A stretch of DNA of 64,000 bases, from positions 22,235 through 86,234 of IMG/VR virus record IMGVR_UViG_3300035698_022898; one strand, 5' to 3'. Of this stretch, positions 29,024 to 53,472 are shown piece by piece. The notes below the pieces were generated by a model. The model saw only the letters and a list, made by a program, of their open reading frames with translations. It did no database searches and was not told the DNA's origin. The translations under genes were made by a program, and so were the position numbers. Within the stretch, counting starts at the first letter, position 1, and every line of letters begins with the position of its first letter. Source of the DNA: a virus.

Positions 29024-31705
29024 CTAATGAACTAGGTTGTACTCAACACCCTTCTTGTCTTTCCAGGTGTTGTCAGTAAAGGTGACTTCCGTCTTGTCGA
29101 ACCAACTCCCGTCAATGGGGGTGAACTCTGTTTCAATGTCAAGTGGAACGATAATCCAGGGGTGTTCCTCTCTGATGTATTCACAAGAGATAGTTCGTAT
29201 GGTAGACACCACTTTGTTTTGTTCTTCGGGAACAGTATCCGTGAGCATACAGTCATGTATCTGCCCTATAAGGTCAGAATCCCACCCAGCAGCCTTAGCT
29301 TCCTCGTTAACCTCATTTGCTGACCAAAGCAGACAGTGAAAAGCAGTCCCCTGAATCTTTGTATTGATAATCTCGTTTTTCGATAGGTATCCAGAGCGTC
29401 TATGTCCAAAGAACATTTCCACATACCCATCGCGAACAAAATCTTTGATGGATTTTTCTTGCCACTTCTTGGTAGCTGCAAGGCGTGTCCAGAAATCATC
29501 TTCAACATCTTTCATGTGTTTTTCAAAATCTTGGAATACATGAATGCCTATATCATGGAAGTGTTCTTGTATGGGTATACCGTCTTCGGTCTTCATATTG
29601 GTAACCCAACAGGCATCCCAAATAGTTCTGGCACATGCTTTATACCATGAACCGTAAACCATGGGAAAGACTTGTCCGTTTTTAGCATGGAAACGTAACA
29701 TCTTAGCAACTTGATCTTGGCGCAACTGAAAAATCTTCATTGCTTGGTCCCTGTGCATATCTGTAGTTGGGTCTTGAATATAATTTACTAACACAGGGTC
29801 CTGAGTATAACATGCTAAAATACGAATTTCAATCGCGCCGTAATCGTTTTCAGCCAAACGTCTTCCGGGTGAAGCTTTTACACCGCTCCTACAAGCTCTA
29901 CGTGCCGCTTCATCTCTTACAGGAACATTATGAAAATTAGGTTTACTACTAGAACTACGATATGTTCGAGCAGTATGTAGATCGAAGAAGGGGTGGATTT
30001 TTTCATCGTCGTCAATTTCCCTGAGGAATTGAGCCATATAAGTATCACATATCTTTTCTAACTTCCTCAAGCGCATGAGGCGTTTAATGAATGGATTATC
30101 CATCCCTACAAGCACTTCCTCATCTACGGAAGCAAGCCCGGACTCTGTTTTCTTTTCAGGAACCATCCCCATGAGGTCAAACAATAAGTACCTAAGATCT
30201 TTATCCGATCCTATTTTAATGCGACGACCGGTATTCTTTATAAAAATCTCTGCTTCGAGAGAATCTTGTAGTCGGATAGTTATTCTATTTATCTGTTCTC
30301 GTAGGCGTTTTTCTTCCTCAAGATAGTATTGTCTATCCATGGGGATGCCTTTCCGTTGCATCTCACCACATACAACTAATCCTTGTTGCCAGAAACGACG
30401 AGCCCGAAGCAACCCGTTCTTTCCCTTTAATTCTGCACGTTGTTCCAAGTACAGTCTCTTAGTGAGCAGAGAATCTATTCCGTTGTATTTTAAAACATGG
30501 GGGAGTGGCACTTCCTCCATACGATTAAAGAATTCTCCAGGAGCCGATTTTTTGTAAGGGTCTATGTCTTTATCATATTCTTCTACACCCCATCGAACAT
30601 AAGCTTGAAATTTTAATCCCGATACTTTCTTTCTATCATCAAGTAGGTGAGCCGTGTTCATGGAACACCAACTTAAATTCTGAACCTCAACACCGTGTAT
30701 TTCTCTATCCCACTCCCCCTCAAATTTAGAGTTATGAGCAATTTTTAGTATTTCTTTATGCTCTAAGATCCGTTTCCACATGTCCGTGATGCCCTTGAGT
30801 TGATTGGAGTCCCAATAAGACTTCCACATCATAGGCCAAGCATAAGCAAGATCATCGTATCCTAAAGAAGTGGTCAGTATTTTGCAACCGCGTCTGTACG
30901 GTTTCAAGGCGTTGGTTTCTATGTCATAAGAAATAGGAGGCTTTTGATCTAATACATTCTTAAACATTCCGATAACATCTTCATACTTATATAAACAATG
31001 TACAGTGGTTTCTATGTCCACAGGAGCTGGCATTTTCCTTTTGAGGCATTGTACAGCAAACTCTAAATCCTTACGAAAGACAGATAAGGTAACATCACTT
31101 CGGTCCTTTCTATCCCGATAAGCATAAGAAGGGTGAAATAAAGGTATAATGAGTGCGTTTAAGAAATGATCTGGAATACAGAACTTGCGAAACCGAGAAG
31201 CTGTGATTTGAGAGAACCTACCCATAAACATCGACTCCATAGGTGCTTTACCCAGAAGCCATATATGAGTAGGTTTAAGGTCTCTAATAGCCTTCATCAC
31301 ATAAGGCTTGCAACATTTTAATTCTGTTTTGTTCGGGGGTCTGTTGGCAGGGGGGCGACAATTTGCGGCATTGATTACATGTGCGTCTCTAAATACATTT
31401 ATTCCAAAGGATTTAAGTTCATCTCGAAACCAGTTACCTATAGATCCTTGTAGCGGCATCCCGTTATTATCTCCTACTTCATCCGGAGCCTCAAGAATAA
31501 TCAACAGTCGTTTCTCCCCTTTGCCCATCCAAGGCATTCTAGGAGTCACACAACCTTTGTCTAGCCCGCAAGACTCACACATAGGTGGGCCGGGGTTCAT
31601 ATAAGTGTAAGGATTTGGAAGAGATGTTCCAAAAGGGGTAGCATTCTTGGATAAACTGACACAAGTATTGCCGGGCATATCTTTAATAGAGAAAAATCCG
31701 TTCAT
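29024..31705 (-). CDS. Uracil-DNA-glycosylase domain fused to family A DNA polymerase (893 aa)
   Basis: Replicative polymerase. Residues about 1-215 are a family 4 uracil-DNA-glycosylase-like domain: CESCGLDKGC and NCRPPANRPP...CCKPYV (four Fe-S cysteines), LEAPDEVGDNNG and LFHPSYAYR. Residues about 240-430 are a 3'-5' exonuclease (SYDIETNALK, AHNSKFEGEWD, YNGIDSLLTKR). The rest is PolA-type: motif A ENDYGAIEIRILA (about residue 615), motif B KMLRFHAKNGQVFPMVYGS, and motif C IGQIHDCM, where the usual HDE is HDC. The fusion resembles those in some large phages. ATGA overlap with the upstream small gene. Confidence 0.93.
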   Translation of the reverse strand: MNGFFSIKDMPGNTCVSLSKNATPFGTSLPNPYTYMNPGPPMCESCGLDKGCVTPRMPWMGKGEKRLLIILEAPDEVGDNNGMPLQGSIGNWFRDELKSFGINVFRDAHVINAANCRPPANRPPNKTELKCCKPYVMKAIRDLKPTHIWLLGKAPMESMFMGRFSQITASRFRKFCIPDHFLNALIIPLFHPSYAYRDRKDRSDVTLSVFRKDLEFAVQCLKRKMPAPVDIETTVHCLYKYEDVIGMFKNVLDQKPPISYDIETNALKPYRRGCKILTTSLGYDDLAYAWPMMWKSYWDSNQLKGITDMWKRILEHKEILKIAHNSKFEGEWDREIHGVEVQNLSWCSMNTAHLLDDRKKVSGLKFQAYVRWGVEEYDKDIDPYKKSAPGEFFNRMEEVPLPHVLKYNGIDSLLTKRLYLEQRAELKGKNGLLRARRFWQQGLVVCGEMQRKGIPMDRQYYLEEEKRLREQINRITIRLQDSLEAEIFIKNTGRRIKIGSDKDLRYLLFDLMGMVPEKKTESGLASVDEEVLVGMDNPFIKRLMRLRKLEKICDTYMAQFLREIDDDEKIHPFFDLHTARTYRSSSSKPNFHNVPVRDEAARRACRSGVKASPGRRLAENDYGAIEIRILACYTQDPVLVNYIQDPTTDMHRDQAMKIFQLRQDQVAKMLRFHAKNGQVFPMVYGSWYKACARTIWDACWVTNMKTEDGIPIQEHFHDIGIHVFQDFEKHMKDVEDDFWTRLAATKKWQEKSIKDFVRDGYVEMFFGHRRSGYLSKNEIINTKIQGTAFHCLLWSANEVNEEAKAAGWDSDLIGQIHDCMLTDTVPEEQNKVVSTIRTISCEYIREEHPWIIVPLDIETEFTPIDGSWFDKTEVTFTDNTWKDKKGVEYNLVH

Positions 31706-38500: not shown

Positions 38501-39079
38501 TTAACCTTGTTTAATGGATAAGTGAATGAGGGATAGCGCCTCCCCTCGAGCTTTGGCGTCTTTTTCATGAACACCATACACCGCTGATGTTGTCATAGAG
38601 GCTCCACCATACTGGTTAACACCCCTACAAGTCATACAGCCGTGTTCTGCTCTCATGACCACAATAACCCCAGCGGGATCTACGGTTTTGACGATGCAGT
38701 CCAGAACTTGTTTACAGAGGTTCTCCTGCAACTGAGGACGAGCTGCGAAATGGTTGACAATTCTTGAGGGCTTGGACGCTCCCAAAAGAAAATCTTTGGG
38801 AACGTAAGCGATCCAAGCCTTCCCGTAAAAGGGAAGGAAGTGGTGGGAACACATGGAAACGAAATGAATGGTGTCTAGTAGGATCAGCTCGTTATACTTC
38901 TCGTCGTTGGGGAATACCGTGACTTTGGGGGGCTTCTCATTCAAGCCTTTTAAGAACTCCGTACACCACATTTTTGCAATGCGTTTCGGAGTTTCCTTCA
39001 GGTTGGGGTCAGACAAGTCCAACCCCAACCCTTTGGATAGAATCTCCGTTAGGAGATCGGTAATCAGTGCTTGGTTCAT
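38501..39079 (-). CDS. folE: GTP cyclohydrolase I (192 aa)
   Basis: Converts GTP to dihydroneopterin triphosphate, the first step of 7-deazaguanine synthesis. Zinc and active-site residues are visible: MCSHHFLPFYGKAW (C77, H80) and EHGCMTCRGV (C148, C151). Length is normal for type IA enzymes. It follows the 222-aa gene by 12 nt. With queD and queE in the window, its product most likely feeds DNA modification and not folate. Confidence 0.95.
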   Translation of the reverse strand: MNQALITDLLTEILSKGLGLDLSDPNLKETPKRIAKMWCTEFLKGLNEKPPKVTVFPNDEKYNELILLDTIHFVSMCSHHFLPFYGKAWIAYVPKDFLLGASKPSRIVNHFAARPQLQENLCKQVLDCIVKTVDPAGVIVVMRAEHGCMTCRGVNQYGGASMTTSAVYGVHEKDAKARGEALSLIHLSIKQG

Positions 39080-39091
39080 GAAGGTGCCGGA

Positions 39092-39760
39092 TTACTTGGT
39101 TTTGGCGTCGGTGGCCGGCGCGGCAGTTTCCGTTTTGGTCTCGGCGGCTTTTTCAGCAGGGGCTTCCGTTTTGGTCTCGGCGGCTTTTTCAGCAGGCTTC
39201 TCGGCGGGCTTTTCCTTCTTTTCCGGCTTGAGGGATTCGCGGGCCTTGGTGGCGAAGGCGATCTGGTCGGCGGTGTAGGTCTTTTTCTCGTTTTTGATGA
39301 CCCGTTTGGCGCCGATATCGTAGTAGATCTTGGCACGGCCGGCGATGAAGGTGGCGTCGGTCTGACCCTTGGCTTTGTAGATCTCGGTATAGAGGGCCAC
39401 GGCATCAGGCATGCCCTTGCCGGCGGCAACCAGGTCTTCGGCTTTCTGCTCGTTGTTCGGGCCGCGTTCCTTGGGCTCCTTCTTCTTCTTGGCCGCTTGC
39501 TCTTCTTCCGTGGGGTCTACCCCGTCCACGATGGAGTTGAACATGTCGATGACGCTCTCGGGGATTTTCTTTTCATCCTCGGAGCCTTCGGGAACGGATT
39601 CCACACCGGCCAGAAAGTCCTTCACGAGCTGTTCCTTCTTGGAGCCCATGGTCTGGATTTTGCGGAGTTTGCCGTCGGCGTCTTTGAGCACGCCGGCATG
39701 ATTGAGAATCCCGATTTCCACTCGCAGGTTTTTTGCGTTTACAAATTCCGGTGACAACAT
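39092..39760 (-). CDS. Ala/Lys/Glu-rich tail protein (222 aa)
   Basis: Not recognised. The first 150 residues are a mixed helical domain; the last 40 are low-complexity with tandem AEKAAETKTE units, encoded by near-identical 39-nt repeats (39120-39200). GC is much higher than in adjacent genes, and a long antisense reading frame results from that composition. Such tails can bind DNA or ribosomes. It has its own promoter and is first in the folE unit. Confidence 0.65.
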   Translation of the reverse strand: MLSPEFVNAKNLRVEIGILNHAGVLKDADGKLRKIQTMGSKKEQLVKDFLAGVESVPEGSEDEKKIPESVIDMFNSIVDGVDPTEEEQAAKKKKEPKERGPNNEQKAEDLVAAGKGMPDAVALYTEIYKAKGQTDATFIAGRAKIYYDIGAKRVIKNEKKTYTADQIAFATKARESLKPEKKEKPAEKPAEKAAETKTEAPAEKAAETKTETAAPATDAKTK

Positions 39761-39835
39761 TGTTGGCTTCCTCCTTTAGAGGTTTTAAGAGGTTAATGAC
39801 CTTTCCTGTAAATTGTCCTCCACGTACAAAAAAAT

Positions 39836-39863
39836 ACTATACAGGAGTTCACAGCTTTGTAAA
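39836..39863 (-). promoter_or_regulatory. Sigma70-like promoter for the 222-aa/folE/radical SAM/dpdA unit
   Basis: On the - strand TTTACA, 16 nt, TATAGT, about 75 nt before the 222-aa start. It may drive the whole run to the terminator at 33799. Confidence 0.65.
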
Positions 39864-39897
39864 GAGGTTTATTTGGTATTTATTAAAAGTATCGTTT

Positions 39898-40539
39898 TTA
39901 CTCCAACCCTAAAAGTTTGTGAAGTTGAACATTGAGCACGGCAGTACAGCATTGTGCTTCCAAAGCACTCAATATCTTTTTGGGGTGTATGGCAAAACCA
40001 TTATTGTCACAAACAGGAGAGATTGCAAAACGAGCTTCGGTTGCAGATTGCAAAGATTTAATAATCTTGATAGCCCTAAGAAGTTGCGGCTCGTTAGCAA
40101 TCACAAACTTAATAAAATCTTTAAATCGAAGCTTCGGCAAATTCTCTGCCAAAAAGTAAGAATTTTCGGTTAACTTGTAATCAATAACCCAGAAACAATC
40201 TGCATTGTACCAAACTTCTTGAGTACCGTTAGTTTCTACAGTGACAGAGTATCCCTCTATTCCCAAGGCTTCAACAAGTAAACGTAAATCTTTTTGGAGG
40301 AGAGGTTCACCCCCCGTAATTGTTACCTTTTTGGTGTGTGAGTATTGAGGCAACTCCTTAACTATTCTACTTGCAGCCATATTTCGATCCGATTCATTAT
40401 ACTCTTTTGCCTCGGGGGCATCACAGTAAACACAGTCCAGATTACACCCTGCAAGACGAATAAAAATTGACATGGTTCCTTGACCAAAGGCGTTGACCTC
40501 ACCGTCAATGGAAGAAAAAATATTATTCACCCGAAGCAT
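39898..40539 (-). CDS. queE: 7-carboxy-7-deazaguanine synthase (213 aa)
   Basis: Radical SAM enzyme turning 6-carboxy-tetrahydropterin into 7-carboxy-7-deazaguanine. The cluster motif is GCNLDCVYCD (C32, C36, C39), preceded by the family start NNIFSSIDGEV...GTMSIFIRLA and followed by VTITGGEPLLQ. Start at 40539 with AAGGAG 7 nt upstream. It lies 16 nt inside the 81-aa gene's 3' end and downstream of queD. Confidence 0.93.
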   Translation of the reverse strand: MLRVNNIFSSIDGEVNAFGQGTMSIFIRLAGCNLDCVYCDAPEAKEYNESDRNMAASRIVKELPQYSHTKKVTITGGEPLLQKDLRLLVEALGIEGYSVTVETNGTQEVWYNADCFWVIDYKLTENSYFLAENLPKLRFKDFIKFVIANEPQLLRAIKIIKSLQSATEARFAISPVCDNNGFAIHPKKILSALEAQCCTAVLNVQLHKLLGLE

Positions 40540-40768
40540 CGTGAAACTCCTTTTCTGGAAGAGTTTTGTATGGTTTAGCCACACATTCTATCAAATGTTT
40601 TTCTGGATTATGAATAATTCGTATAATTCTAAAACTGACCGGTCCTTTCAAATCTAAGGACTTTTCAAGAACAAGAGACTCCCCTTCTCTAGGTAGTATA
40701 TCCAGAAATAAATCTAACTGATCTACTGGTCCACCCTTCCACCTTTTGAAGAGGAGTCTAATTTTCAT
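40523..40768 (-). CDS. Unrecognised small protein between queD and queE (81 aa)
   Basis: Not recognised. Starts MKIRLLFKRWKGGPVDQLDL, beta-rich and basic. Start placed at 40768, 2 nt after the queD stop, with GGA nearby. Overlaps queE by 17 nt. Operon position suggests a role with the deazaguanine genes, but no motif supports this. Confidence 0.6.
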   Translation of the reverse strand: MKIRLLFKRWKGGPVDQLDLFLDILPREGESLVLEKSLDLKGPVSFRIIRIIHNPEKHLIECVAKPYKTLPEKEFHDASGE

Positions 40769-40770
40769 GG

Positions 40771-41187
40771 CTATTCCGTATCCGTCCATTCTGCGTAACA
40801 AGTGGATGTTTCCCAAATCCTGACACGGGTAAGTCCACAGCCGATGGGTGTTTGATGGATTTTGTCCCGAACATAGAGACACATGTGTTCTGCGGTAGGA
40901 GGAAGGTACCTGCCGGTGTACTCTGGTCTAGCCAAAACTTCATTGAGATTGGCATGATCCAAAGAATCGATGATCGGATTGAGATACTCCTTCAATTCAC
41001 CAAAGTCGAGGACCATGCCCGTTGAATCGTCCTCATTTGGGTATCGTATTTCCTCGTTGTGATCGAGCAGACGGAACTCCACCTCAATCTTGGCGTTGTG
41101 TCCGTGGGGGTTTTTGCATTTCCCAGGATGTTCCGGAAGTACATGAGCATACGCCACGTTCTCAAAAATCTTAACTACACTGAGCAT
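40771..41187 (-). CDS. queD: 6-carboxy-tetrahydropterin synthase (138 aa)
   Basis: Converts dihydroneopterin triphosphate to 6-carboxy-tetrahydropterin. Zinc ligands H15, H28, H30 and catalytic C24 lie in AYAHVL and CKNPHGHN. DHANLNEV, PTAEHMCLYV and RIWETSTCYAEW complete the QueD pattern. The second of two nearby ATGs (41187) is chosen because AAGGAGG lies 7 nt before it. Confidence 0.94.
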   Translation of the reverse strand: MLSVVKIFENVAYAHVLPEHPGKCKNPHGHNAKIEVEFRLLDHNEEIRYPNEDDSTGMVLDFGELKEYLNPIIDSLDHANLNEVLARPEYTGRYLPPTAEHMCLYVRDKIHQTPIGCGLTRVRIWETSTCYAEWTDTE

Positions 41188-41199
41188 TTTCATTCCTCC

Positions 41200-45993: not shown

Positions 45994-46192
45994 GACGTAC
46001 CAGTTCCACGTACTCTTCAATCACAGCAAGGGCTTCCTCGTACCCGCCAGCCGAGAAAGCCCTTTTTTTCATTTCTTCGGAATGTTTCTTTCTTCCATCC
46101 CCACAGAGGGCTTTGGACGCTTTGGCAAGAATCACCATTGTGTTTCCTTCGGGACCATCCGTATCAATTTCCACTACGGGTTTGTTGGGCAT
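45986..46192 (-). CDS. Small acidic protein coupled to tas (68 aa)
   Basis: Reads MPNKPVVEIDTDGPEGNTMV, then ILAKASKAL and a helical second half (SAGGYEEALAVIEEYVELV). Its ATG shares an A with the tas stop (TAATG), so it is translated with tas. Similar small proteins occur in phages, but I know no function. It could be a Tas accessory; only the coupling supports that. Confidence 0.6.
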   Translation of the reverse strand: MPNKPVVEIDTDGPEGNTMVILAKASKALCGDGRKKHSEEMKKRAFSAGGYEEALAVIEEYVELVRLD

Positions 46193-47184
46193 TATTTGTT
46201 CCTTGTTTTGAGGATGTTGCCTCGGTAATCGTACTTTCCAAAAGGAGAAAGTTCCATTTCCCAAGGCTTGCTGTGTTGTATGTGGAGTTTTTCCTCGGCG
46301 TATTCTCTCGCGACAGGTAGATTTTCTTGTTCCTTCCAGGCAACGTATAGATCGACAAGAAATCTTTTGATCATATATCGCATTGCCATTCGTTGGAGAT
46401 GTTTGTCAGAGGCTTCCAAAAGATCAACCCTGTGTTGGAGACGCATACGGTAGTTATCGTAAATAAGTCGATACTTTCCGCCGCCGATGATTATTCCGCC
46501 CTTGTCTTTGGGCTTATTGTAAACCACTTGTTTCATAAAGCTTGAGGCAAGAACCTCAACCAGTTTGGTTTTCAGCCAGGGATTAAAAGTGATACTATCC
46601 TTTTCCTTAACTTCTCCTTCTTTATCAGTGTACGCTTTTTTTACCAAGTGCTCTTTGCGTTTACTTGTTCCTTTTCCGTCTTTTTCAACGCCAAGACCTG
46701 CGTAAGCCCAGAAACTGGAAGGGTACTGAGCTTTGTAGATGTCCAGTTCACTAATAATAACGCCAGCCATAGCTGGACCTACACCTAGAATCTTGTCTAA
46801 GAAGTTTTTGAAGATAGGGAAGTCGCCGAGAATTTTTTCAATGAGAGCAAAATGTTCCTTCTCAGCTGCAACGAGTTTTTGAAGTTGATGGATAAGAACC
46901 AATTCCGTGTAGCTGGAAATCAGTCCGAAGGGTTTAAACTGTTTGAGTGTGGGGAGTTTGAAACCCTTGGTGTTTTCAATCCCTCCCCCAGTTACAGTGC
47001 GATAGTTTTTTACAAGAAGAGGGAGGAGTTTGCTTGCTTCCAAGGGTTTTTCCCCAGAAGCAATAGCTCTGTCTCTCCAGTTGCTTGCGATTCGATTAGA
47101 CGTTTGCATTCGAAGTTTTTGGACGTCATACGCACCTCTAACCAATGCTCTCAAATTCTCTTTTAAAACCGAATTGCACAACAT
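46192..47184 (-). CDS. tasA: Tas protein, Nop/IS110-like RNA-guided protein without a visible nuclease domain (330 aa)
   Basis: Tas proteins of TIGR-Tas systems bind short dual-guide RNAs through a Nop domain related to that of box C/D RNP proteins and to IS110 recombinases. Visible: the helical N-terminus LRALVRGAYDVQKLRMQTSN (11-30), the helix-hairpin-helix-like LGVGPAMAGVIISELDI (133-149) with WAYAGLGV (159-166), and the conserved NPWLKTKLVEVL and YRLIYDNYRMRLQHR segments. No HNH or RuvC motif is seen, so it is closest to nuclease-less TasA. The 36-nt-period array ends 20 nt upstream of its start. Strong AGGAGGAG site. Could be misannotated as an IS110 transposase, but no IS ends are present. 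Confidence 0.85.
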   Translation of the reverse strand: MLCNSVLKENLRALVRGAYDVQKLRMQTSNRIASNWRDRAIASGEKPLEASKLLPLLVKNYRTVTGGGIENTKGFKLPTLKQFKPFGLISSYTELVLIHQLQKLVAAEKEHFALIEKILGDFPIFKNFLDKILGVGPAMAGVIISELDIYKAQYPSSFWAYAGLGVEKDGKGTSKRKEHLVKKAYTDKEGEVKEKDSITFNPWLKTKLVEVLASSFMKQVVYNKPKDKGGIIIGGGKYRLIYDNYRMRLQHRVDLLEASDKHLQRMAMRYMIKRFLVDLYVAWKEQENLPVAREYAEEKLHIQHSKPWEMELSPFGKYDYRGNILKTRNK

Positions 47185-47203
47185 AAGACTCCTCCTATTT
47201 AGA

Positions 47204-47783
47204 TGTTCGTTTTTGGCTTTTGGGTTTCTCCAGTGAAATGACTCGCTACCAATATTTGGGTTTCTTGGTTTAAGTGGCTCGTTTTTTCTATTTGGGCATC
47301 TTCCACATAAAGACTCACTTGCTTATCTAGGGTTTCTACATCATATTGGTTCGTTTCCGGCACAGGTTTCCTTAGAGAATTTGTCTCGCTCGATAACTAA
47401 GGGTTTCTTGCCCACTCTGGCTCGTTTTATCTACCTGGGTTTCTACGCAATGCTGACTCGCTCCTTGCTACGGGTTACTAGAAACTAATGACTCGATGCC
47501 GCACTTTGGGTTTCTTCGGTCAATGTCTCGCTAGTTAGATTCGGGTTTCTTAGGGGCCGTGGCTCGTTTCTGGGTGTGGTTTACTCTAATCCTTGACTCG
47601 CTGTATGATTTTGGGTGTCTCTTTTTCATCGACTCGCTTTCTGGTTCTGGGTTTCTCCCGATCCTAGGCTCGCTCCACTTTTTTGGGTGTCTTTAAAGAT
47701 ATGGCTCGCTCGTTGAGGATGGGTTACTTGCCTCGGATGGCTCGTTTCACGCTGATAGGGTTTCTTCCCGGCTCCGACTATGT
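47204..47783. repeat. TIGR array: about 16 units of 36 nt, two alternating 8-nt boxes with 9-11-nt spacers
   Basis: On the + strand box A (GGGTTTCT, variants GGGTTACT, GGGTGTCT) starts at 47222, 258, 294, 330, 365, 401, 437, 472, 508, 543, 578, 613, 649, 685, 721 and 758. Box B (GACTCGCT, variants GGCTCGTT, GTCTCGCT) starts at 47240, 276, 312, 348, 383, 419, 455, 490, 525, 561, 595, 631, 667, 703 and 739. Degenerate B boxes flank both ends (47204, 47776). Box-to-box distance is 18 nt with only 1-nt slips. The intervening 9-11-nt sequences all differ. This is the dual-spacer design of TIGR arrays, which yield RNAs of about 36 nt. The transcribed strand cannot be decided here. Confidence 0.9.
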
Positions 47784-47812: not shown

Positions 47813-47889
47813 CTTTCGTTCTAAGACACGGAACTTTTCAGTGTGACGTAACATACACAAGACAGGCGTTCCATGTCTTAGAACGAAGG
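47813..47889. repeat. 22-bp inverted repeat at the distal end of the TIGR array
   Basis: Arms 47813-47834 and 47868-47889 pair over 22 nt with two mismatches around a 33-nt loop. They contain TTAGAACGAA, also present before the ligase gene. It separates the array from the UvsW-like stop (47937). It may be a terminator, an RNA-processing hairpin or a boundary of a transferred cassette. No convincing promoter for the array was found nearby. Confidence 0.7.
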
Positions 47890-52720: not shown

Positions 52721-53239
52721 TTATTGAGAAGACGCCGAACCTTGTTTAAATCTTCTTCGGTATGAGGTGTTCCCCCAAGAGTTCATTTCCAAACACCAGT
52801 TCAGTATATCCTTATGATGTTCCAGATCGTTGATGTTAAAGAGTAAATCATATTTTCGGAGTAGGATTTCCCACCCATCTATATCTTTGAGTTTGTGTCC
52901 TCCAAAAACTTCCAGTTCGTTATTAACGAAATCCCATATCGCTGTAATTCTTTGGAGGCCGTCCACTAACTCAAAAGGTCCGCGGAAGTCATTCATCCAT
53001 CCTGGGCAGTTGAAATAAATAACTCTTCCTGAACGTCCCCCTCGTAGTATGTATTCCACAAAGGTGATTTGTTGCTCCTCTGTCCAAACGTGTGCTCGTT
53101 GATAGTCAGGGTACATATTGAGTGGAAAGGATCGGTCTTCATTGCAGTATCTATCTAGAGTTTCTATAAAATGATCCAATCCTATGTTCACTTGGTAATG
53201 ACCGTCTCGGGTCATTTGATGTATATCTGTGTGTTTCAT
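52721..53239 (-). CDS. DUF262/ParB-like domain protein, short form (172 aa)
   Basis: Contains the DUF262 hallmarks PDYQRAHVWTEEQQITFVEY and FELVDGLQRITAIWDF (the DGQRR-type motif). Full-size DUF262 proteins are larger and often part of restriction or GmrSD-type systems; here only the N-terminal domain is present. ATG overlaps the previous stop (TAATG). Function in phage is unclear. Confidence 0.8.
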   Translation of the reverse strand: MKHTDIHQMTRDGHYQVNIGLDHFIETLDRYCNEDRSFPLNMYPDYQRAHVWTEEQQITFVEYILRGGRSGRVIYFNCPGWMNDFRGPFELVDGLQRITAIWDFVNNELEVFGGHKLKDIDGWEILLRKYDLLFNINDLEHHKDILNWCLEMNSWGNTSYRRRFKQGSASSQ

Positions 53240-53472
53240 TACCACTTCCCGTTTTCGTTAGGAATAAATCTAGGGTTGACTATTGCATCTAGTCCTATAA
53301 GATTTAAACTGTCTCTGCTTGCTTCGATGTCCTGACCTCTACGGATAGAGTCAATGTGAGGTAAAGCTTTCTGGAGATTCTCCCAATCAACTTGATCCCA
53401 AGGAAACTCCTCAGGTGCGTTGAAATTGAAACAGGGATGATCGTAAGCAAAGTAGGGAGCAAGTTTGATCAT
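53239..53472 (-). CDS. Unrecognised small protein (77 aa)
   Basis: Not recognised. Pro/Asn/Asp-rich with aromatic residues (FAYDHPCFNFNAPEEFPWDQ). Coupled by stop-start overlaps to both neighbours, so it is probably made together with the DUF262 protein. Confidence 0.6.
   Translation of the reverse strand: MIKLAPYFAYDHPCFNFNAPEEFPWDQVDWENLQKALPHIDSIRRGQDIEASRDSLNLIGLDAIVNPRFIPNENGKW

What the first reader, a model, noticed from the sequence alone, without database searches (positions are those of the whole stretch)
46192..47783. A TIGR-Tas locus in a phage replication module
The + strand of 47204-47783 alternates two 8-nt boxes (GGGTTTCT and GACTCGCT types) exactly every 18 nt, so one unit is 36 nt, and the 9-11-nt sequences between boxes are all different. 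Immediately beside it is a 330-aa protein with the helix-hairpin-helix and helical features of Nop/IS110-related Tas proteins. Array period, dual spacers and adjacent Nop-type gene together match the recently described TIGR-Tas RNA-guided systems. About 31 spacers are present, giving roughly 15-16 dual-guide RNAs.
Basis: partly seen in the sequence, partly recalled or inferred. Interest (0 to 1): 0.96.

Follow-up and report, generated by a model that had tools for sequence, protein, structure and literature searches.

The report
Phage TIGR-TasA guide-RNA locus
An uncultivated phage carries a complete TIGR-Tas locus, a recently discovered RNA-guided DNA-binding system, with 16 two-part guides and a nuclease-free guide-binding protein; its relatives reveal a pairing rule between the two halves of each guide that may help to find what these systems target.

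Summary
At 47203-47783, 31 full repeats alternate between two types (16 loop, 15 edge) with a truncated edge at each end: 32 spacers, 16 dual-spacer units. The adjacent 330-aa protein is a Tas protein: its family profile matches solved TasH (1e-76) and TasR (6e-41), its predicted fold has TasH and TasR chains as its eleven best PDB matches, and NCBIfam's TIGR-Tas model matches at 2e-27. No nuclease domain is present, so it is TasA. One correction: the guide strand is minus, the tas strand. This holds for every array tested in relatives (35 of 35, then 95 of 95) and is supported by G-U pairing between tigRNA ends. A new result came from 936 non-redundant units in related phages: the last bases of spacers A and B covary as strict Watson-Crick complements (discovery z=5.5, second set z=7.0, clear outlier of 81 position pairs). 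This suggests that both spacers read one contiguous DNA site and share its central base pair. No target was found in the phage itself or in related phages, so the biological role stays open. A new member of a known kind.

The parts
47203..47783 (-). TIGR array: 16 loop and 15 edge repeats, truncated edge at each end, 32 spacers, 16 dual-spacer units
47775..47783 (-). 5'-truncated edge repeat at the array start (ACATAGTCG; only the 3' part AGTC is conserved)
   Evidence: Sequence read directly
47203..47211 (-). 3'-truncated edge repeat at the array end (AACGAACAT)
   Evidence: Sequence read directly
46192..47184 (-). tasA: 330-aa solo Nop-type Tas protein without nuclease domain
47191..47196 (-). 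AGGAGG ribosome-binding site of tasA, between array end and start codon
   Evidence: Sequence read directly
47815..47887 (-). Hairpin with a stem of about 20 bp upstream of the array; possible leader or terminator of the preceding gene; not conserved in most relatives, so membership in the system is uncertain

Best explanation
This is a dual-repeat TIGR-TasA locus carried by an uncultivated phage. Inferred from published TIGR systems: the array is transcribed on the minus strand, probably together with tasA just downstream, and is cut within the edge repeats into 36-nt tigRNAs. A dimer of TasA holds each tigRNA by the box motifs of its loop and edge repeats, with the two tigRNA ends closed by a short edge-edge helix; covariation here supports that helix. 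Spacer A pairs with one strand of a short DNA site and spacer B with the other, and in some units the two spacers appear to share the central base pair. TasA has no nuclease, so its most likely action is to bind and bend target DNA and so block transcription or replication of a competing element. That last step is inference (about 0.4).
For: Protein identity by profile, family model and fold. Array anatomy with truncated edge ends. Repeats and tas found together in independent searches, always on one strand. Edge-edge pairing between tigRNA ends with G-U pairs on the tas strand. Spacer A/B end covariation in two sets. Published biochemistry of TIGR systems: PMC12045711.
Against: No RNA data for this locus. 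No spacer target found. The window protein scores just under the NCBIfam cut-off (96.5 against 100 bits). No terminator directly follows the array, unlike the typical published layout; here tasA follows instead.
Confidence: 0.95

Rival explanations
1. TasA is a guide-directed DNA architectural or recombination aid, for example bending DNA for integration or for the phage's own replication, rather than a weapon against other elements.
For: The locus sits among replication genes. [quoted passage not shown]
Against: None of the 16 guides matches the phage's own 86-kb contig better than chance. Replication genes are a common location for phage cargo and do not by themselves imply a role.
Confidence: 0.2
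2. The A9-B9 covariation is an RNA-RNA contact within the tigRNA at the point where the two spacers meet, not a shared target base pair.
For: The two bases occupy equivalent places next to the box at the 5' side of loop and edge repeats, and would be near each other at the centre of the target complex.
Against: G-U combinations are depleted rather than favoured in both sets, unlike the edge-edge RNA pairs where T-G is the commonest. A strict Watson-Crick RNA contact is not excluded.
Confidence: 0.3
3. The protein is an IS110-family transposase or its decayed remnant and the repeats are unrelated.
For: Weak Pfam Transposase_20 match and PHROGs 'transposase' label.
Against: The protein lacks the N-terminal DEDD transposase domain, Tas structures outscore IS110 ones, and the same array type recurs beside tas in many phages.
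Confidence: 0.01

Closest known systems
TIGR-TasA with dual-repeat array (Flavonifractor plautii type), Faure et al. 2025, PMC12045711
   Same: Solo Nop-domain protein, alternating edge and loop repeats of 8-12 nt, 9-nt spacers, 36-nt unit, truncated edges at array ends, phage location
   Different: Array lies upstream and runs straight into tasA; 16 units, slightly above the usual 5-15; last bases of spacers A and B covary across relatives, which the paper does not report
TIGR-TasH (Salicola phage CGphi29; PDB 21kl, 9w04)
   Same: Best structural and profile match; some TasH-type relatives share the same repeat sequences
   Different: No HNH nuclease in the window protein
TIGR-TasR (PDB 9mty)
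   Same: Same guide-binding fold; extra pair between edge repeats
   Different: No RuvC nuclease; TasR repeats begin UG and end CCA, here AG and CA
IS110 transposases (IS621) and box C/D proteins Nop5/Prp31
   Same: Related Nop-type RNA-binding fold (IS621 clear, Nop5/Prp31 weak)
   Different: No DEDD transposase domain; weaker matches; arrays of many short guides instead of one bridge RNA or dispersed C/D RNAs

Membership tests
TIGR-Tas | Tas protein with Nop-type RNA-binding domain | tested here: met
   Profile to TasH 1e-76 and TasR 6e-41; fold search top eleven all TasH/TasR; NCBIfam 2e-27, 96.5 bits, just below its cut-off of 100
TIGR-Tas | Two alternating 8-12-nt repeats with 9-nt variable spacers, unit about 36 nt | tested here: met
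[quoted passage not shown]
TIGR-Tas | Array next to tas | tested here: met
   Array ends 18 bases before the tas start codon; same in relatives
TIGR-Tas | Processing into 36-nt tigRNAs | not testable with these tools
   Only indirect: edge-edge covariation fits units running from edge to edge
TIGR-Tas | Dual-spacer DNA targeting | tested here: inconclusive
   No target found; A/B end covariation fits the published geometry
TasA subtype | No HNH or RuvC domain | tested here: met
   Protein starts at the coiled-coil helix; no N-terminal nuclease region in alignment or model
IS110 transposase | N-terminal DEDD (RuvC-like) transposase domain | tested here: not met
   NCBIfam IS110 model 19.8 bits against cut-off 140

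The most novel reading that the evidence does not exclude
In TasA-type arrays the two spacers of a guide descend from one contiguous stretch of double-stranded DNA and share its central base pair, so a guide addresses a 17-bp site written as spacer A followed by the reverse complement of spacer B with a one-base overlap. This would be evolutionary evidence for tandem targeting in nature and a concrete rule for finding natural targets. The discovery paper reports no obvious covariation between spacers.
Probability: 0.5. Interest if true: 0.65.

Novelty: new member of a known kind. Interest (0 to 1): 0.5.

Why it matters
TIGR-Tas systems were described in 2025, and the role and targets of the nuclease-free TasA form, the commonest one, are unknown. 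This locus adds a complete phage example and leads to a large set of relatives. The A-B end covariation is measurable from sequence alone, gives a geometric rule for target searches, and can be tested directly in binding assays. The edge-edge covariation also shows how to call the guide strand and unit boundaries without RNA data.

Tried and rejected
Self-targeting: all 16 guides against the phage's 86-kb contig gave no hit below three mismatches, with counts near shuffled pairing; the overlap-by-one form gave none at two mismatches or fewer. Targets in related phages: 936 units against about 0.79 Mb gave numbers like shuffled pairings. IMG/VR scans with two 17-mers gave 10 and 23 contigs, but each set collapses to two unrelated families, so chance is enough; no control scan was run. 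Longer overlaps between A and B than one base were tested and not supported. The upstream hairpin as a general leader was rejected: only a few of 101 array flanks have one. The covariation test was repeated after two levels of near-duplicate removal to guard against counting related units twice. Rfam and tRNA scans of the window found nothing.

Full report
Observation. On the minus strand, 47783 down to 47203, two repeat types alternate: loop AGAAACCCA and edge AGCGAGTCA (often AACGAGCCA). There are 16 loop and 15 edge repeats with a truncated edge at each end, so 32 spacers and 16 units. Steps are 18 nt in 24 of 30 cases, the rest 17 or 19. The repeat-chain score is 68.3; ten random windows from a first-order Markov model reach at most 4.1. 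The window is part of an 86,234-base IMG/VR virus record.

Protein. The 330-aa ORF at 46192-47184 has only a weak Pfam match (Transposase_20, E=0.033), but phmmer finds TasR 9mty at 3e-8. A profile of 26 relatives hits TasH 21kl at 1.2e-76 and TasR 9mty at 6e-41; the profile contains TasH-type members, which helps the TasH score. NCBIfam's TIGR_Tas_endo matches the window protein at 2e-27, 96.5 bits against a cut-off of 100, and matches all 26 members. AlphaFold2 gives pLDDT 84.6 and pTM 0.79; the best eleven PDB matches are TasH and TasR chains, followed by IS621 and ISCro4, with Nop5 and Prp31 weak. The protein begins at the coiled-coil helix and lacks the N-terminal HNH-like region seen in TasH-type relatives, so it is TasA.

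Association. A DNA pattern made of the repeats alone found 28 viral stretches. Of the 32 records behind these and the protein-found loci, 28 have a Tas match by direct search; distant TasH-type ones are joined to the family by iterated search. A later profile search found 223 relatives and kept 80; 75 of the 79 new loci have an array of this type.

Strand. All 35 arrays in the first set and all 95 in the second lie on the tas strand. Pairing between successive edge repeats gives an independent test: position 6 of one edge pairs with position 1 of the next, and position 5 with position 2 (positions counted from 0). In the first set of 484 edge pairs, 255 are T-G at 6-1, which is a pair only on the tas strand. 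Against within-array shuffles the second set gives 568/576 (expected 558.5) and 574/576 (expected 566.7), 0 of 5000 shuffles each; the reverse direction shows nothing. This matches the extra edge pair reported for TasR (PMC12045711). Most of these pairs are nearly invariant, so the test rests on the varying minority. In the window itself 13 of 14 such pairs form.

Spacer covariation. Across 360 non-redundant TasA-type units the last bases of A and B are complementary in 121 against 86.8 expected, z=5.5. The same test on 576 further units, mostly from other contigs and with units close to the first set removed, gives 195 against 141.9, z=7.0, 0 of 5000 shuffles; it is the clear outlier among 81 position pairs (next |z| 3.4). 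Stricter removal of similar units keeps the effect: 80/240 against 58.3 and 77/212 against 57.8. Pairing A of one unit with B of a neighbouring unit shows nothing. G-U combinations are depleted. The TasH-type arrays hardly vary at these bases and are uninformative. The effect is an excess of about 12% of units. My reading is that both spacers read one contiguous site and share its central base pair, with drift toward A at that position hiding many cases; a strict Watson-Crick RNA contact is the main rival. The published geometry (8-nt 3' overhangs, cut 5' to the base paired with the fifth tigRNA base after box C; PMC12045711) implies by my derivation that the target reads spacer A then the reverse complement of spacer B, which is the arrangement tested. 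The paper states that A and B show no obvious covariation.

Targets. None found: not in the phage's own contig, not in related loci. Two IMG/VR scans are compatible with chance.

Surroundings. The locus lies among replication genes on the minus strand: a DnaB-like helicase, a DnaG-like primase, a DEAD/ResIII helicase, a DUF932 protein and a family A DNA polymerase. The polymerase has only remote relatives in phage records, so host and taxonomy are unknown.

Verdict. A genuine TIGR-TasA locus, new as an instance but of a kind described in 2025. The covariation between spacer ends goes beyond the published description, as far as the papers held here show; most subscription papers are not held, and the TasH structures of 2026 have no paper in the library.

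Noticed in passing
47815-47887: A hairpin with a stem of about 20 bp lies between the helicase gene and the array; one pair is G-U only on the minus strand. Few relatives have a comparable hairpin.
   Followed up: partly
29024-31705: A uracil-DNA-glycosylase-superfamily domain is fused in front of a family A DNA polymerase.
   Followed up: no
38501-41193: A GTP cyclohydrolase I gene lies next to ORFs that look, by eye, like QueE and QueD, suggesting a preQ0-type 7-deazaguanine DNA modification pathway.
   Followed up: no
52721-53245: A GmrSD N-terminal (DUF262, ParB-like fold) protein about 5.5 kb upstream of the array; the discovery paper reports ParB-like genes in operons with some tasA genes, but this one is not adjacent.
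   Followed up: no
L028:3574-4680: The predicted tas ORF reads through its upstream array (36 nt is 12 codons), giving a false repetitive N terminus; such start calls could mislead annotation.
   Followed up: partly
L015, L023, L026, L027, L035, L036, L061: TasH-type proteins with an HNH-like N terminus share the same repeat sequences as the TasA clade, so repeat type does not track nuclease content.
   Followed up: partly
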